From: Methanobrevibacter sp.
Lineage (GTDB): Archaea; Methanobacteriota; Methanobacteria; Methanobacteriales; Methanobacteriaceae
DNA: 56,530 bases
Assembly (NCBI RefSeq): GCF_017431965.1
Contig: NZ_JAFRKB010000058.1
Span: 1-56,530 of the forward strand
Direction: 5' to 3'
Shown here: one piece after another, positions 14,516 through 34,500 of the stretch
Layout of the letters: each line of letters begins with the position of its first letter
How positions within the stretch are numbered: the stretch's first letter is position 1
The notes under the pieces: generated by a model
Database searches by the model: none
Told to the model about the DNA's origin: nothing
What the model saw: only the letters and a program-made list of their open reading frames with translations
Position numbers and translations under genes: made by a program

Positions 14516-14656
14516 ATAAATCCCACAAAAAACTTTTTTTATAATTAAATATTTGATTTACATTATTAATAAATTTATGATAATTTTTTATAACCCTCCA
14601 ATATACAGATTAAAAAAAATGTATATACTAGCTCAGCTAAAAATAAAACTGATTTT

Positions 14657-25579: not shown

Positions 25580-26368
25580 TCAGAAGAAAAATAAAGCTGA
25601 TGCCATGAACAACAATGCCATTAAACGACCTACTTCATTACTCATTCCCAAAACATCCCCATTTGCAATTCCAAAATTGCGCCTTGCAATAATTGAGATG
25701 ATTATTCCCGAAAACATCGCCCCTAAAACGCCGCAAACACCAACGACTTCACCTAATAAAAATGCTATGATGCAAACGAGGACTGTGGAAATCAGATATT
25801 TGGAAGGAGTGGTCTCAAAAATGAAATGACAACCTATTCCGGGAGTTAAAGGTATTGATAACAATGCAGTTGTCAAAAGAGATGTCTTTGCAGCCATTTC
25901 GCATATAATTATCCCAATTATAAAATTATAATCCAAAATGTTGTAAATGCCCGCAACGGTCAAACTGGCCACTAAAAACAAAGTTGCAACTCCCCCTGCA
26001 CCTACAGAAGAATCTTTCATCACTTTAATTTTACGTTCAGGTTCTCCATGAACCATAACCCCATCAGCCATGTCCATAACACCATCCAAATGATTGTAGC
26101 CTGTGATAATCATTAAGAATGCATAAACTATAGCTGCTGTGAAAAATGAATTTAAATGAAGGAAATTCAAAGAAACATAACCGCAAATTGCTGCCAAAAT
26201 ACCTATAAATACATGTAACAAAGGCCAGCACCAAGTTAACTTGGTCATGTATTCAAGAGATGTGTAAACACGAAGCGGCAATATTGTTGAAAATGTTAAA
26301 AGCCCTAAAAGTGATTTAATAGGTGAAAATTCTTCATCTTCAAAGTAGTTATCATCTTCCATAAGCAT
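25580..26368 (-). CDS. cobS: Adenosylcobinamide-GDP ribazoletransferase (cobalamin synthase)
   Basis: A 262-residue membrane protein that joins adenosylcobinamide-GDP to alpha-ribazole (phosphate) in the last assembly step of cobamides. The family signature is present: LLTFSTILPLRV at the start, then NHLDGVMDMADGVMVHG and KIKVMKDSSVGAGG with the metal-binding Asp residues. About six or seven hydrophobic segments fill the rest. Cobamides are needed for the methyltransferase steps of methanogenesis. A CbiS-like cobamide gene lies 2 kb away on the same strand. I saw no cobalamin riboswitch upstream. Confidence 0.94.
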   Translation of the reverse strand: MLMEDDNYFEDEEFSPIKSLLGLLTFSTILPLRVYTSLEYMTKLTWCWPLLHVFIGILAAICGYVSLNFLHLNSFFTAAIVYAFLMIITGYNHLDGVMDMADGVMVHGEPERKIKVMKDSSVGAGGVATLFLVASLTVAGIYNILDYNFIIGIIICEMAAKTSLLTTALLSIPLTPGIGCHFIFETTPSKYLISTVLVCIIAFLLGEVVGVCGVLGAMFSGIIISIIARRNFGIANGDVLGMSNEVGRLMALLFMASALFFF

Positions 26369-26670
26369 TCCCCAACGATTTTATATATCCATCCGAAAGT
26401 TAATTCTATTTCTTAGTTATAGTATATTCTCCATAATATATTATTCTTATCAATCAGAAGCTAATCAGTCTAAACCCAATATGATACAAACAATGTAATT
26501 TTTTGAAACTAATGAAGATGTTCAAATGAGCATCAATCTTCAATTTCCTTCTTAATAATAAATTATAATTAACAAATAAGTGGATAATTTTCATTTAATC
26601 AAAAAATGATTGCATATATAGACCTTAATTTAGAAAAAATTTTATACATAAAAAATAGATATTTTAAATT
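26369..26670. promoter_or_regulatory. Divergent promoter region of cobS and the M50 protease
   Basis: A 302-base AT-rich spacer with no ORF I would support. A TATA-like GCATATATA at 26612-26620 is about 50 bases before the M50 gene. An imperfect hairpin at about 26501-26545 (GAAA, TGAAGA and TG pairing with CA, TCTTCA and TTTC, interrupted) could be an operator or processed RNA, but the pairing is weak. Nothing else is visible. Confidence 0.35.
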
Positions 26671-27312
26671 ATGTTTACATTTACACGTAAAGAAATACTA
26701 AATTTAATCATTGCATTTATCGTGCTTGCAGTTGCTTTTGCAATATCCACTGTCAAACTTGATGTTCACAGATTCATTTCAGTTTTACCTATCGTTATGG
26801 TTGGTGTGGCTATAGGATCCTTATCACATGAGCTCGGACATAAATACGTGGCAATGAAATATGGTTACCAAGCCGAATTTAAAGCCTGGCCCATAGGATT
26901 ATTAATTGCACTCGCTTCATCATTCATTGGTATCGTATTTGCATTTCCCGGTGAAATTCGCACTAATGCAGACAATATAACTGATGAAATGAATGGTAAA
27001 ATTTCAATTGCCGGACCAATGGCCAACATGGTACTTGCATTAATATTTATTGCAATTGCAATACTGGCATATCCTTTAATGTCCTATTCATTAATCTTTA
27101 CATTAATATATTTAATCGGTACTGTAGGTTTCTCCGTTAATGCCTTTTTAGCTACATTTAACCTATTTCCAATTTATAGCTTAGATGGGACTAAAGTCTT
27201 AAAGTGGAACATTGTATATTGGATTATTGCTTTTGCCATCGCCGGAAGTATGCTCTTAATATCCATTGGAATAGGTGCTGAAAATATGGTTAAATTAATC
27301 ATTGAGATGTAA
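26671..27312 (+). CDS. Site-2-protease-type (M50) membrane metalloprotease
   Basis: A 213-residue protein with about five or six membrane segments. The zinc site is H53-E-L-G-H57 in a hydrophobic helix, and the third ligand is D172 in NLFPIYSLDGTKVL. A second family block is ISIAGPMANM near residue 112. This is the compact core-only S2P form without a PDZ domain. It would cut transmembrane substrates within the membrane. The substrate is unknown, and neighbours (cobS, DUF389) give no clear hint. Confidence 0.88.
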   Translation: MFTFTRKEILNLIIAFIVLAVAFAISTVKLDVHRFISVLPIVMVGVAIGSLSHELGHKYVAMKYGYQAEFKAWPIGLLIALASSFIGIVFAFPGEIRTNADNITDEMNGKISIAGPMANMVLALIFIAIAILAYPLMSYSLIFTLIYLIGTVGFSVNAFLATFNLFPIYSLDGTKVLKWNIVYWIIAFAIAGSMLLISIGIGAENMVKLIIEM

Positions 27313-27456
27313 ATGGCATAATATTAAGCTGAAGATGTGATGTAGACAACTAATTATCAAATCTGGATGCAATGAATATTTTTTCTAAAAATTAATGGGC
27401 AAGTTATAGGGATTATTGACAACCCCCACATCTTTTTTTCTCCCACACTCACTTTT

Positions 27457-28233
27457 TTAAAGCATCATATAATATACTGCTGCTATACTTGGCAATGCAA
27501 GGATAATTGTGTTTCTAATCATCTTATAACGACGGATTTTCCATTCTTTTGGTGTCAATTCCCTCACTTTTGGGATTTTCAAAACACTTAAAATAATGCT
27601 CGCTGACAGGAAAATGAAATATGCATTGAGGATAAACAGATATCCTGCACCAAGGAGCATGTCCCACCTGCCGTTTGCAATAGAATATCCGCAGGTACAT
27701 AGCGGAGGCATCAGAGCAGTTGCAATTGCAACACCCGGAATAACAGTATTTGTCTTGTCTATTCTGGTTTGCCCAATGATTCCTGCAAGCCCACCAAAGA
27801 ACGCTATAAGCACATCAAAAAAAGTCGGAGATGTTCTTGCAAGCAACTCTACTGTTGGTTCTTTAACTGGGGAGAAGAGAAAATAAAGCATTGCTGCAGT
27901 AACACTGATTACAATCTGAACTCCAAACCCAAGGGATTGCTTGCGAAGCAAAGAATAATCTGCAGACACACTTGCATATGCTGAAGCAAGGATACTTCCC
28001 ATTATCGGTGAAATCAACATTGCACCAATAATCACTGCTGTTGAACTCATATTGAGACCGACAGAAGCAATTACCATCGCACATACCATCACACACATAT
28101 TAGTTCCAGTGACTTTTCCCCCATCAAGGAGACGTGACCTAATCTCATCATTTGATGCGGAATCTTCTGATAATGAAAACATTCTTTTTATTTTTTCTTT
28201 TATTGTTTCTTCTTGATTACTCTCTCCACTCAT
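27457..28233 (-). CDS. DUF389 / TIGR00341 family membrane protein
   Basis: A 258-residue membrane protein with a soluble N-terminal 40-50 residues and about six hydrophobic segments. The conserved DUF389 block is visible: SSTAVIIGAMLISPIMGSI followed by ASVSADYSLLRKQ, then PGVAIATALMPPLCTCGYSI. The family has no well-established function that I know of. The short form here lacks the longer N-terminal domain of many bacterial members. The gene stands alone between M50 and the CbiS-like gene. Confidence 0.85.
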   Translation of the reverse strand: MSGESNQEETIKEKIKRMFSLSEDSASNDEIRSRLLDGGKVTGTNMCVMVCAMVIASVGLNMSSTAVIIGAMLISPIMGSILASAYASVSADYSLLRKQSLGFGVQIVISVTAAMLYFLFSPVKEPTVELLARTSPTFFDVLIAFFGGLAGIIGQTRIDKTNTVIPGVAIATALMPPLCTCGYSIANGRWDMLLGAGYLFILNAYFIFLSASIILSVLKIPKVRELTPKEWKIRRYKMIRNTIILALPSIAAVYYMML

Positions 28234-28394
28234 ATTGCCATTTCCTTTATCCTTTATGATACGTCAAAAGACGGCTAACTTTGAAAATATTCAGTAAAAT
28301 AATTTCAATTATTATTCCCTATTAAATAATTGATGTTAATATTAATTAAATTGATTGTTATCTCATTGTTTTAATTCTGTTAGGAATATCGCAA

Positions 28395-29472
28395 CTATTC
28401 CTCAAATATCTTTGAAACGCATCCGGCAATCAAACCTGCAAAAATATCATCCAACATAGGAGGTAACCCATAAATAATTCCAGGTTTTGCTTCATCATAC
28501 CTTTTAAAATTAAACGCAGCTTTTGTTCCTGCAATCTGATTTGAAATAGCCAAACCTAAAACATCCCCAGTATACAAATAAGCCGGATCACCAATTGCAT
28601 CAAATTCACGTATGCGATTTCCGGTTAAATCCTGTTCTGTTCTCATTGCCGCAACAAGAAGAGTTGCAACATTAATATCCGCCAAAGACTTGAGAATTTG
28701 TGATTTCATTTTTTCTTTAAGCTCATCAGTTACCTCAATGCCTGAAACAAGCTCCATTCCAGCATCGACCAAGTCTCCAATTTGAATTCCTTCAGCAACA
28801 AGGTAATCTAAAATACCGAATGATAACTCAAGTTGTTTGAATGCATCTTCAATGCTTATTTCAACGGCATCATCGATTCGAATTTTCAATTCATCAAAAT
28901 CAACTTCATCATATTCCGCATTATTAATGTCTAAATCATTTCCATCAGTTTCGGGAATATTTGAAAGCACTGCAAGAAAATCATTGATGTTTAGGATATT
29001 CTGAATATGCAAAGGCAAAGACATATTGGCAAGTACCTTAGCCTTAATATTTGTTACAATCTTAAAGACTTTTAACAAATCTTTTGGAGCCAAAACCCTG
29101 TTAATGTATAGAATATGGCTTAAATTGATTCTCGCATCGCTAAATCCTTTAGGAGAGTTAGCAACCTGAAGATGTTGTGTAAAATCCTGAAGTACAACAT
29201 CATTCGCCATGAATGTAAAAAGAGTCAAATCATCATAAGTGTTTTTAAAATATTGCAGGGATTCTGTGGCTTGTGCAATATATGAACCATGAAAATGGTT
29301 GAAAACTTCTGCTTTTTTAGCGGTAGCTTCAAAATCATCCTTAGCCTTGACAACATTGACATTTTCCACAATGTCAATTCCGTCACCAACAGTGAAATCG
29401 CTGAATGCCAAAAAAATGATTTGGATTGTTAATGCAAATCCCATAATCCTTTTCAATGATATTAATTTTCAT
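28395..29472 (-). CDS. CbiS-like cobamide salvage protein (CbiZ-like + CobZ domains), probable frameshift near 5' end
   Basis: The intact frame (29456 to 28395, 353 residues) ends in a CobZ/PgpA-like phosphatase domain (about 212-353: [56 protein letters not shown]). This is alpha-ribazole-phosphate phosphatase in archaea. The preceding 200 residues look like a diverged CbiZ (amidohydrolase) domain, so the layout resembles CbiS. The TTG start at 29456 has no ribosome binding site. An ATG at 29472, preceded by GGGG, opens another frame ([19 protein letters not shown]) that would join this one if the T7 run (29410-29416) were six T. So the real N-terminus is probably frameshifted, by mutation, sequencing error or slippage. 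The family call is by memory of motifs. Confidence 0.6.
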
Positions 29473-33776: not shown

Positions 33777-34122
33777 ATGGATTTTTTGAGTATTGTTGTC
33801 CGTGTTTTAATGATGAAGAGTCAGTTTTTGGATTTTTTTTAAAGAAAATGAAAAATCATTGGCTGACTATGACCATGGAATCATATACCTTAATGATGGA
33901 TTCAATGATAATACTCTAAAAAATATTAAAGAAATAGCCAATGAAAATTCAAATGTTAAAGGTTTTGCTACAATGATGTGTGCCATTTTACTTTTAGGAG
34001 GCATACAATTACTATCAATTGGAATTTTGGGTAAATATTTGGAAAAAACATGCATTGAAACTATAGACCAATTTTCATTGTCAAAGAATCAAATATTGAC
34101 GATTTATAATTATGTGATTTAA
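33777..34122 (+). pseudogene. Decayed family 2 glycosyltransferase (DPM1/GtrB-like)
   Basis: Fragments of a polyprenyl-phosphate glycosyltransferase can be followed through three lesions. MDFLSIVV starts at 33777. A one-base loss near 33801 shifts the frame to PCFNDEESVFGFF. A second shift occurs in a run of eight T at 33833-33840, giving KENEKSLADYDHGIIYLNDG. NSNVK then jumps straight to GFATMMCAILLLGGIQLLSIGILGKYLEK, the C-terminal membrane part. The whole catalytic middle, about 200 codons including the DxD site, is missing. The last residues also drift from family sequence. A working gtrA follows at once. Confidence 0.8.
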
Positions 34123-34500
34123 ATGAGATTAGATAGGGAACTGATTTTATATGTTTTTTTCGGGACTTTGACATTTTTTGTTAATGTTATTGTTTATTTC
34201 CTTTTTGAAAACATATTTGGTGTCAATTATATCATTTCAAATATTATAGCATGGTTTTTTTCAGTCCTGTTTGCATATATCACCAATAGAATTTGGGTAT
34301 TCGAAAGTAAAAGCTCCAACATTATAAAAGAAATGTCCCTATTCTTTGGAGGGAGAATATTTTCAGGCGTAGTGGATACTGGGTTGATGTACCTTTTTAT
34401 TGATATTTTAACAATAGGAGATTTAATCTCAAAAATTGTTGTTCAAGTCATTGTAGTGATTTTGAATTATGTCTTTTCAAAATTGATTGTTTTTAAATGA
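34123..34500 (+). CDS. GtrA family membrane protein
   Basis: A 125-residue protein with four membrane segments, full length for GtrA. It has the conserved FGTLTFFVNVIVYFLFE, the AWFFSVLFAYITNRIWVFES block, and a last segment ending NYVFSKLIVFK. GtrA-like proteins are thought to help move polyprenyl-phosphate-linked sugars across the membrane, normally with a GtrB glycosyltransferase. Here the partner gene directly upstream is broken, so this copy is orphaned, or pairs with a transferase elsewhere. Confidence 0.88.
   Translation: MRLDRELILYVFFGTLTFFVNVIVYFLFENIFGVNYIISNIIAWFFSVLFAYITNRIWVFESKSSNIIKEMSLFFGGRIFSGVVDTGLMYLFIDILTIGDLISKIVVQVIVVILNYVFSKLIVFK

What the first reader, a model, noticed from the sequence alone, without database searches (positions are those of the whole stretch)
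28395..29472. Homopolymer frameshift at the 5' end of a CbiS-like cobamide gene
The annotatable 353-residue frame begins with a TTG lacking a ribosome binding site. Sixteen bases earlier an ATG with a GGGG site opens another frame coding [19 protein letters not shown], and the two would fuse smoothly if the T7 run at 29410-29416 were T6. The gene may be phase-variable or disrupted, or the assembly may have a one-base error. The C-terminal half carries CobZ/PgpA-like motifs and the N-terminal half a diverged CbiZ-like domain.
Basis: partly seen in the sequence, partly recalled or inferred. Interest (0 to 1): 0.55.

Follow-up and report, generated by a model that had tools for sequence, protein, structure and literature searches.

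The report
One-base break in methanogen vitamin-B12 gene
A vitamin-B12 gene of a gut methanogen carries one extra T that cuts off its first twenty codons, a defect not seen in the relatives examined and probably a reading error or a recent private mutation; comparing those relatives also suggests that the enzyme's presumed active site has been wearing away across much of the genus.

Summary
In detail: the A7 run (T7 on the gene strand) at 29410-29416 separates an ATG-started peptide ([20 protein letters not shown]..., closed after 29 codons) from the long frame 28395-29456. In 63 of 63 other genus loci examined both parts lie in one frame, so the start is 29472 and the break is private to this assembly. 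Phase variation has no support: the tract varies from 3 to 8 T between species and is in frame in all others. The rest of the gene shows no decay and a survey of 350 kb of the assembly found no other frameshift, so I favour a consensus over-call (0.55) over a recent real slip (0.38); reads would decide. The protein descends from a CbiZ-CobZ (CbiS-type) fusion. Its CbiZ half has lost the CbiZ signatures, and five acidic residues of the CobZ/PgpA half, complete in 22 of 22 outgroup rows, are complete in only 15 of 62 genus rows, while the frame stays open, dN/dS stays low and the partner CobS stays. The window reads G-D-D-D-D instead of D-E-D-D-D. That erosion is the interesting part; whether activity is lost is untested.

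The parts
29383..29472 (-). Ancestral 5' end: ATG-started frame, 29 codons before TGA; its first 20 codons are homologous to residues 1-20 of relatives
29410..29416 (-). T7 run (A7 on +) at which the frame changes
28395..29456 (-). Long frame (353 aa from TTG); its residues from about 16 on are in frame with relatives
28833..29411 (-). CbiZ-type N-terminal domain (DmpA/NylC/ornithine acetyltransferase fold in the model of relative L003), CbiZ signature motifs lost; strands 4-8 and most of 11-24 of that model lie upstream of the break
28401..28808 (-). CobZ/PgpA-type C-terminal domain
28563..28568 (-). Gly-Asp codons in place of the D-E pair that is invariant in the outgroup rows (L003 positions 302-303; coordinates computed from the five-residue offset between window and L003)
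25580..26368 (-). cobS, the pathway partner, 262-aa open frame, separated here from the cobZ-type gene by two genes

Best explanation
The gene is the single CobZ-type gene of a Methanobrevibacter-like methanogen and descends from a CbiZ-CobZ (CbiS-type) fusion. Its true start is the ATG at 29472. The assembly has one T more than the reading frame allows in the run at 29410-29416, so translation from the true start would end after 29 residues, and translation from an internal start would lack the first strands of the N-terminal domain. Most likely (0.55) the extra T is a consensus/assembly over-call; next (0.38) a recent real slip that this strain carries. The weaker statement, that the break is private to this assembly and is not a phase switch, I hold at 0.9. 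Shown: the frame break, its privacy among the loci examined, the conserved upstream peptide. Inferred: its cause and its effect on the protein.
For: 63 of 63 other genus loci read through the site in one frame. Run length at the site differs freely between species, with T7 and T8 in frame. The rest of the gene carries no other stop or frame break. The window lineage does not evolve faster over residues 22-358: Tajima chi2 1.33, 0.18 and 0.92 in the three trios that include it. dN/dS of window pairs is 0.05-0.09 where dS could be estimated, so the gene was under constraint until recently. Survey of the same assembly: of 85 G009 ORFs tested against 350 kb of it, 2 frameshift candidates, this gene and one antisense shadow ORF. 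Of 32 A/T runs of 7 or more inside 74 non-overlapping alignments (76,224 bases), 24 are well aligned in one frame on both sides, this one is broken, and 7 could not be judged: four at alignment ends, two in weakly aligned stretches, one upstream of a true start. The genome holds one copy. A null allele of a gene found in 65 of 67 genus genomes is unlikely a priori (judgement).
Against: No reads, coverage or second strain could be examined. The low frameshift count in the survey fits a single real mutation as well as an isolated error. The window lies in a clade in which the CobZ site is eroding, so a real null allele is less implausible than for an ordinary conserved gene. The bin has 8.34% estimated contamination, so strain mixing may matter. 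Frameshifts near alignment ends would have been missed in the survey.
Confidence: 0.55

Rival explanations
1. A real, recent slip in the T run has inactivated the gene, or left only an N-truncated product from an internal start, in this strain.
For: The clean single break and the absence of other frameshifts in the surveyed assembly; the phosphatase site is already eroded in this clade, window GDDDD, so loss may cost little.
Against: Frame kept in 63 of 63 others, low dN/dS in both domains, no faster evolution of the window lineage, no second lesion.
Confidence: 0.38
2. Phase-variable gene: the T run slips reversibly and switches the protein on and off.
For: A homopolymer near the 5' end is where such switches sit in bacteria (general knowledge).
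Against: Tract only 7 long; run lengths 3-8 over the 63 loci with the site found, in many interrupted by C, and the frame kept in all others; 36 runs of exactly seven A or T in this window alone, so such runs are common.
Confidence: 0.03
3. Programmed or transcriptional slippage at the T run restores the frame, so the gene is functional as it stands.
For: U-rich run that could slip (general knowledge).
Against: The shift needed from the ATG frame is +1 (or -2), whereas a U-UUU-UUU run favours -1 (recalled); no relative examined needs it.
Confidence: 0.04
4. Genus-wide reading, not exclusive of the above: in much of this genus the protein has become a pseudoenzyme in both halves and is kept for a non-catalytic role, with another phosphatase finishing cobamide synthesis.
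For: 22 of 22 outgroup rows but 15 of 62 genus rows keep all five acidic residues; 43 of 62 have at least one non-acidic replacement, 9 of 62 at the E; positions such as G306, N311, G331, L336, G346, A349 and G350 stay at 100%; the acids align with DE, D and DD in three bacterial relatives of known structure; CbiZ signatures lost in the N-terminal half; the 40 listed close pairs (of 129) have dN/dS under 0.55 in both domains; CobS found in 66 of 67; CobC in 0 of 25, 16 of them of this genus.
Against: The catalytic role of these acids is inferred from conservation, not shown, and I picked the five after seeing the alignment. Three other outgroup-conserved acids are kept (D222 100%, D265 98%, E279 90%). 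Non-acidic invariant positions erode too (P296 36%, M352 39%, K323 69%, R324 73%), so the change is not confined to the acids. D326 is lost in half of the genus and may be dispensable; E-to-D changes may keep activity. No activity data.
Confidence: 0.35

Closest known systems
CbiS of Methanopyrus kandleri (bifunctional CbiZ-CobZ; Woodson and Escalante-Semerena 2006, title seen in a reference list only)
   Same: Same domain order and descent; L065, a Methanopyri contig, scores 290.8 bits with NF038002 (cut-off 250) and matches CobZ as well.
   Different: Window scores 65.5 bits, C-terminal part only; the CbiZ signatures are absent in its relatives' N-terminal domains; CobZ D-E pair changed to G-D.
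[quoted passage not shown] TIGR03161)
   Same: C-terminal domain, 132-135 bits; about 50 bases from cobS in many genus genomes, for example G001, G014 and G079 (coordinates).
   Different: Below the 152.5-bit cut-off, as are all 67 genus genomes and even the CbiS control; acidic site incomplete; carries a 200-residue N-terminal domain.
CbiZ adenosylcobinamide amidohydrolase (PF01955), present as a separate gene in this genome (G000:C4:15294-15893)
   Same: Same fold set in both models (NylC, DmpA, ornithine acetyltransferase); bridge protein L058 scores CbiZ 83.8 bits and PgpA 47.9 bits in one chain.
   Different: The window and L003 give no CbiZ match, and the genus rows shown lack its GTIN and GTGTD motifs.
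Bacterial YpjQ / LtrC, PgpA-like structures 1tlq, 1y9i, 1rfz
   Same: C-terminal fold, Z 17.8-18.5, and the DE, D, DD acids aligned (E 3.7e-6 for 1tlq, only 0.016 and 0.02 for the others).
   Different: No CbiZ-type N-terminal domain.

Membership tests
CobZ (TIGR03161) | Score over curated cut-off 152.5 bits | tested here: not met
   132.0 and 135.2. Weak test: 0 of 67 genus genomes reach it, nor do L058 (152.0) and the CbiS control L065 (150.4)
CobZ (TIGR03161) | PgpA-type helical fold | tested here: met
   Model of relative L003: 1rfz Z 18.5, rmsd 2.6, 142 aligned; the window protein itself was not modelled
CobZ (TIGR03161) | Acidic residues D302 E303 D326 D341 D342 (L003 numbering), chosen here from conservation | tested here: not met
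   Window G D D D D
CobZ (TIGR03161) | Phosphatase activity | not testable with these tools
   needs an enzyme assay
CbiS (NF038002) | Score over curated cut-off 250 bits across both halves | tested here: not met
   65.5 bits, profile 206-334 only; control L065 290.8 bits
CbiZ (PF01955) | Family match of the N-terminal domain | tested here: not met
   no match at E 0.001; hhalign of genus N-terminal domains to CbiZ 79.5% over 88 columns, of other genera 96.2% over 204 (no negative control was run for these two)
CbiZ (PF01955) | GTIN and GTGTD signatures (read from the CbiZ alignments here) | tested here: not met
   replaced by e.g. INLSH and HIQNILN in the genus rows shown; the window reads INLSH and HIQNILN too
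CbiZ (PF01955) | Fold shared with true CbiZ | tested here: met
   L003 N-terminal domain and CbiZ L080 both match NylC/DmpA/OAT, Z about 13 and 14-16; models only; Foldseek TM-scores are low, about 0.3
Phase-variable contingency gene | Repeat tract kept, and out-of-frame states seen, among relatives | tested here: not met
   63 of 63 others in frame, tract length 3-8
Phase-variable contingency gene | Mixed tract lengths within one clone | not testable with these tools
   needs reads

The most novel reading that the evidence does not exclude
In much of Methanobrevibacter the only recognisable CobZ protein is a double pseudoenzyme: a CbiS-type fusion whose amidohydrolase half died early and whose phosphatase half has been losing its acidic site repeatedly, yet which is kept in frame and under purifying selection beside an intact CobS. 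It would then serve as a structural or regulatory subunit of the cobamide-assembly step, and an unknown phosphatase would finish the coenzyme. The window frame break, if real, would be the extreme of that relaxation.
Probability: 0.35. Interest if true: 0.6.

Novelty: new variant of a known kind. Interest (0 to 1): 0.38.

Why it matters
The frame break itself matters little: it warns that a TTG start would be wrong and that this gene should not be called phase-variable without reads. The erosion matters more: methanogenesis needs cobamides (general knowledge), the last step is assigned to CobZ by homology, and in 47 of 62 genus rows the residues conserved elsewhere are incomplete while the partner CobS is kept. 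Either the catalytic residues of CobZ/PgpA enzymes are misjudged, or the final phosphatase of cobamide synthesis in these gut methanogens is still unknown; both can be tested.

Tried and rejected
Reciprocal decay of a duplicated CbiS: the separate CbiZ protein of the genome has an extra C-terminal helical part, and I asked whether it is a CobZ remnant. NF038002 aligned into the CobZ half, but profile comparison gave 0.3% and 0.2%, no better than reversed-sequence controls at 0.5-0.6%; of five C-terminal pieces three had no NCBIfam match and two only unrelated weak ones; no PgpA structure was listed for its model (that absence is inconclusive). Not claimed.

Link between a missing separate CbiZ and complete CobZ acids: 5 of 9 against 10 of 53, Fisher p 0.03; not corrected for kinship, several genomes incomplete; not claimed.

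Sister strains: a viral-contig scan found no relative, and the two genome collections hold one genome per species by their descriptions, so no second strain was available. The metagenome collection had no scan allotted.

A second suspected frame break in the window, at the T7 run at 14534, came up when I rechecked the survey; it lies upstream of the true start of a triose-phosphate-isomerase-like gene (14515; name recalled) and is no frameshift. Other in-frame stops in the survey were antisense ORFs or lay near the 5' end, as far as position and overlap tell; I did not examine each one. Frameshifts close to an HSP end would be missed.

Papers: the primary CbiS and CobZ papers (PMC1482944, PMC1428423) are not held. 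PMC3087415, PMC3541065 and PMC3223730: passages only. Search listings only: CobZ, CbiS, PgpA active site, Methanobrevibacter with cobamide or CobZ, CbiZ with fold terms, pseudoenzyme with cobamide (none found), CbiZ with Methanobrevibacter (2 papers), CobZ with catalytic residues. I saw no report of this erosion in those listings; they do not cover most subscription journals.

Rows dropped: G005 (gene split over contig ends) from the genus table; L130 and L179 (unresolved bases) from the acid count, leaving 62; the 22-row outgroup was chosen by hand from the loci; L027, L029, L062, L065 were left out of it, as were the loci that look like genus members (L031-L043, L060).

Full report
Observation. 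The window is contig C28 of a 2.05-Mb, 78-contig assembly (94.98% complete, 8.34% contamination); the best matches in the genome collection come from records titled uncultured Methanobrevibacter. The gene lies on the minus strand. The 353-codon frame 28395-29456 starts with a TTG without an obvious ribosome-binding sequence; 16 bases upstream an ATG preceded by GGGG opens [29 protein letters not shown], closed by a TGA at 29383-29385. Between them lies A7 on the plus strand at 29410-29416. The coordinates of the finding are right.

Relatives. 39 of 41 genomes searched, own included, and 35 loci of the genome collection hold relatives. Against the window frame the alignment starts at residue 14 or 15 in 15 of 23 genus loci and at 1 to 6 in the other 8, but in the relatives the sequence in frame before that point is the window's other-frame peptide, for instance [27 protein letters not shown] in L003. 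In the genus 65 of 67 genomes have a CobZ match. I had 64 loci (G005 left out, its gene is cut by contig ends): in 63 of 63 others the stretch from residue 6 or earlier to 100 or later aligns as one piece; only the window needs two. Mean pairwise identity in the genus is 69.7% for residues 1-19, 63.5% for 20-200 and 68.3% for 217-357. In the model of L003 (mean pLDDT 90.5, pTM 0.85) the part upstream of the break is strand 4-8 and most of strand 11-24.

Cause of the break. The run at this site is 6 T in 36 of 63 loci with the site found, and 3 to 8 in the rest; L020 and L153 have T7 and L018 has T8, all in frame. Runs of exactly seven A or T occur 36 times in this window. To see whether the assembly is indel-rich I compared 400 kb of relative G009 with about 350 kb of this genome, window included: 85 ORFs tested, two frameshift candidates, one of them an antisense shadow, the other this gene; in the reverse direction 100 tested and no candidate. 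Of 32 A/T runs of seven or more inside 74 non-overlapping alignments (76 kb), 24 are well aligned in one frame on both sides, this one is broken, and 7 could not be judged, one of which proved to lie upstream of a gene start. The window lineage does not evolve faster over residues 22-358 (Tajima chi2 1.33, 0.18, 0.92), and its dN/dS with near relatives is 0.05-0.09 where computable. So the break is isolated and either recent or not real. I lean to an over-called base because a null allele of a gene kept across the genus is a priori rare; this is judgement, not a result. The shift needed to join the frames is +1, which does not fit the usual -1 slip on U runs (recalled).

What the protein is. 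The C-terminal domain matches PgpA (30.8 bits, cut-off 28) and CobZ (132 bits, cut-off 152.5), and in the L003 model the PgpA-like structures 1rfz, 1y9i and 1tlq (Z 17.8-18.5). The missed CobZ cut-off is a weak argument, since no genus genome reaches it and the CbiS control L065 stays just below it. The N-terminal domain of the window has no direct family match, but its counterparts in other genera align with CbiZ (hhalign 96.2%, E 2e-9; the genus rows alone 79.5%), the bridge protein L058 carries both a CbiZ (83.8 bits) and a PgpA match, 4 of 40 members of the alignment match CbiZ, the control L065 being among the 40, and the models of L003 and of the genome's separate CbiZ (L080, pLDDT 83.1) hit the same NylC/DmpA/ornithine-acetyltransferase folds (Z about 13 and 14-16; low Foldseek TM-scores). 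A joint alignment shows graded loss of the CbiZ signatures: GTIN is GSIN in L058 and gone in the genus rows; GTGTD is gone in all 16 Methanobacteriales fusions shown. So the fusion appears to descend from a CbiS-type protein whose amidohydrolase half has decayed, while a separate CbiZ gene exists in 57 of 67 genus genomes, this one included.

Erosion of the second site. Five acidic positions (D302, E303, D326, D341, D342 in L003) are complete in 22 of 22 outgroup rows that I chose and align with DE, D and DD in three bacterial structures, but are complete in only 15 of 62 genus rows; 43 of 62 have at least one non-acidic replacement: 19 at D302, 9 at E303, 31 at D326, 7 at D341, 12 at D342. 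I picked these five after seeing the alignment. Against a purely catalytic reading: three other conserved acids are kept (D222, D265, E279 at 90-100%), and some non-acidic invariant positions erode as well (P296 36%, M352 39%, K323 69%, R324 73%), while others stay at 98-100%. The window reads G-D-D-D-D. On a quick tree seven genus rows that branch off first are complete, an eighth (L140) stands at an unresolved fork, and the losses lie in two groups of 12 and 42 rows, 11 and 36 of them incomplete; parsimony needs 8 changes between complete and incomplete and 15 state changes at E303, but well-supported branches alone force only 2, so the number of losses is uncertain. CobZ model scores fall from a mean of 143 bits (no change) to about 104 (three or four changes), which is partly circular. 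Yet frames stay open, and the 40 closest pairs listed, of 129 under the dS limit, have dN/dS below 0.55 in both domains. The C-terminal domain evolves more slowly than the N-terminal one in complete pairs such as L002/L005 (0.032 against 0.166) and faster in some incomplete ones such as L155/L169 (0.24 against 0.059), though not in all. CobS is found in 66 of 67 genomes, 63 over its cut-off. The other known alpha-ribazole phosphatase, CobC, was found in 0 of 25 genomes, 16 of them of this genus.

Reading. The frame break is real in the sequence, private among the loci examined, and probably trivial. The gene around it belongs by descent to the CbiS/CobZ group but fails features of CbiS, CbiZ and CobZ tested here. 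Whether it still works as a phosphatase is open. The boldest reading not excluded is a doubly dead enzyme kept for another role, with the final phosphatase of cobamide synthesis unknown in these methanogens. The catalytic role of the five acids is inferred from conservation; no assay was seen.

Noticed in passing
G000:C4:15294-15893 (L080:1165-2178, minus strand): The separate, motif-complete CbiZ carries about 110 extra C-terminal residues, predicted helical, without a convincing family match; neighbouring frames look like thermosome and exonuclease VII large subunit (thermosome by eye).
   Followed up: partly
window 33859-34500: An 87-codon TTG frame without a Pfam match directly precedes a GtrA-type membrane protein gene and may be the end of a longer gene.
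   Followed up: no
G055:C4:18901-19607: The first CobS match in this genome has four stops inside and is followed by a second piece; cause not examined.
   Followed up: no
L043:3001-4109, L130, L179: Breaks in the cobZ-type gene of other assemblies (L043 and L130 may be the same genome); in L130 and L179 they coincide with unresolved bases.
   Followed up: partly
window 25580-29472: The cobZ-type gene and cobS are about 50 bases apart in genus genomes such as G001, G014 and G079 but are separated in the window by a frame that looks like an M50-type peptidase (by eye) and a DUF389 gene.
   Followed up: partly
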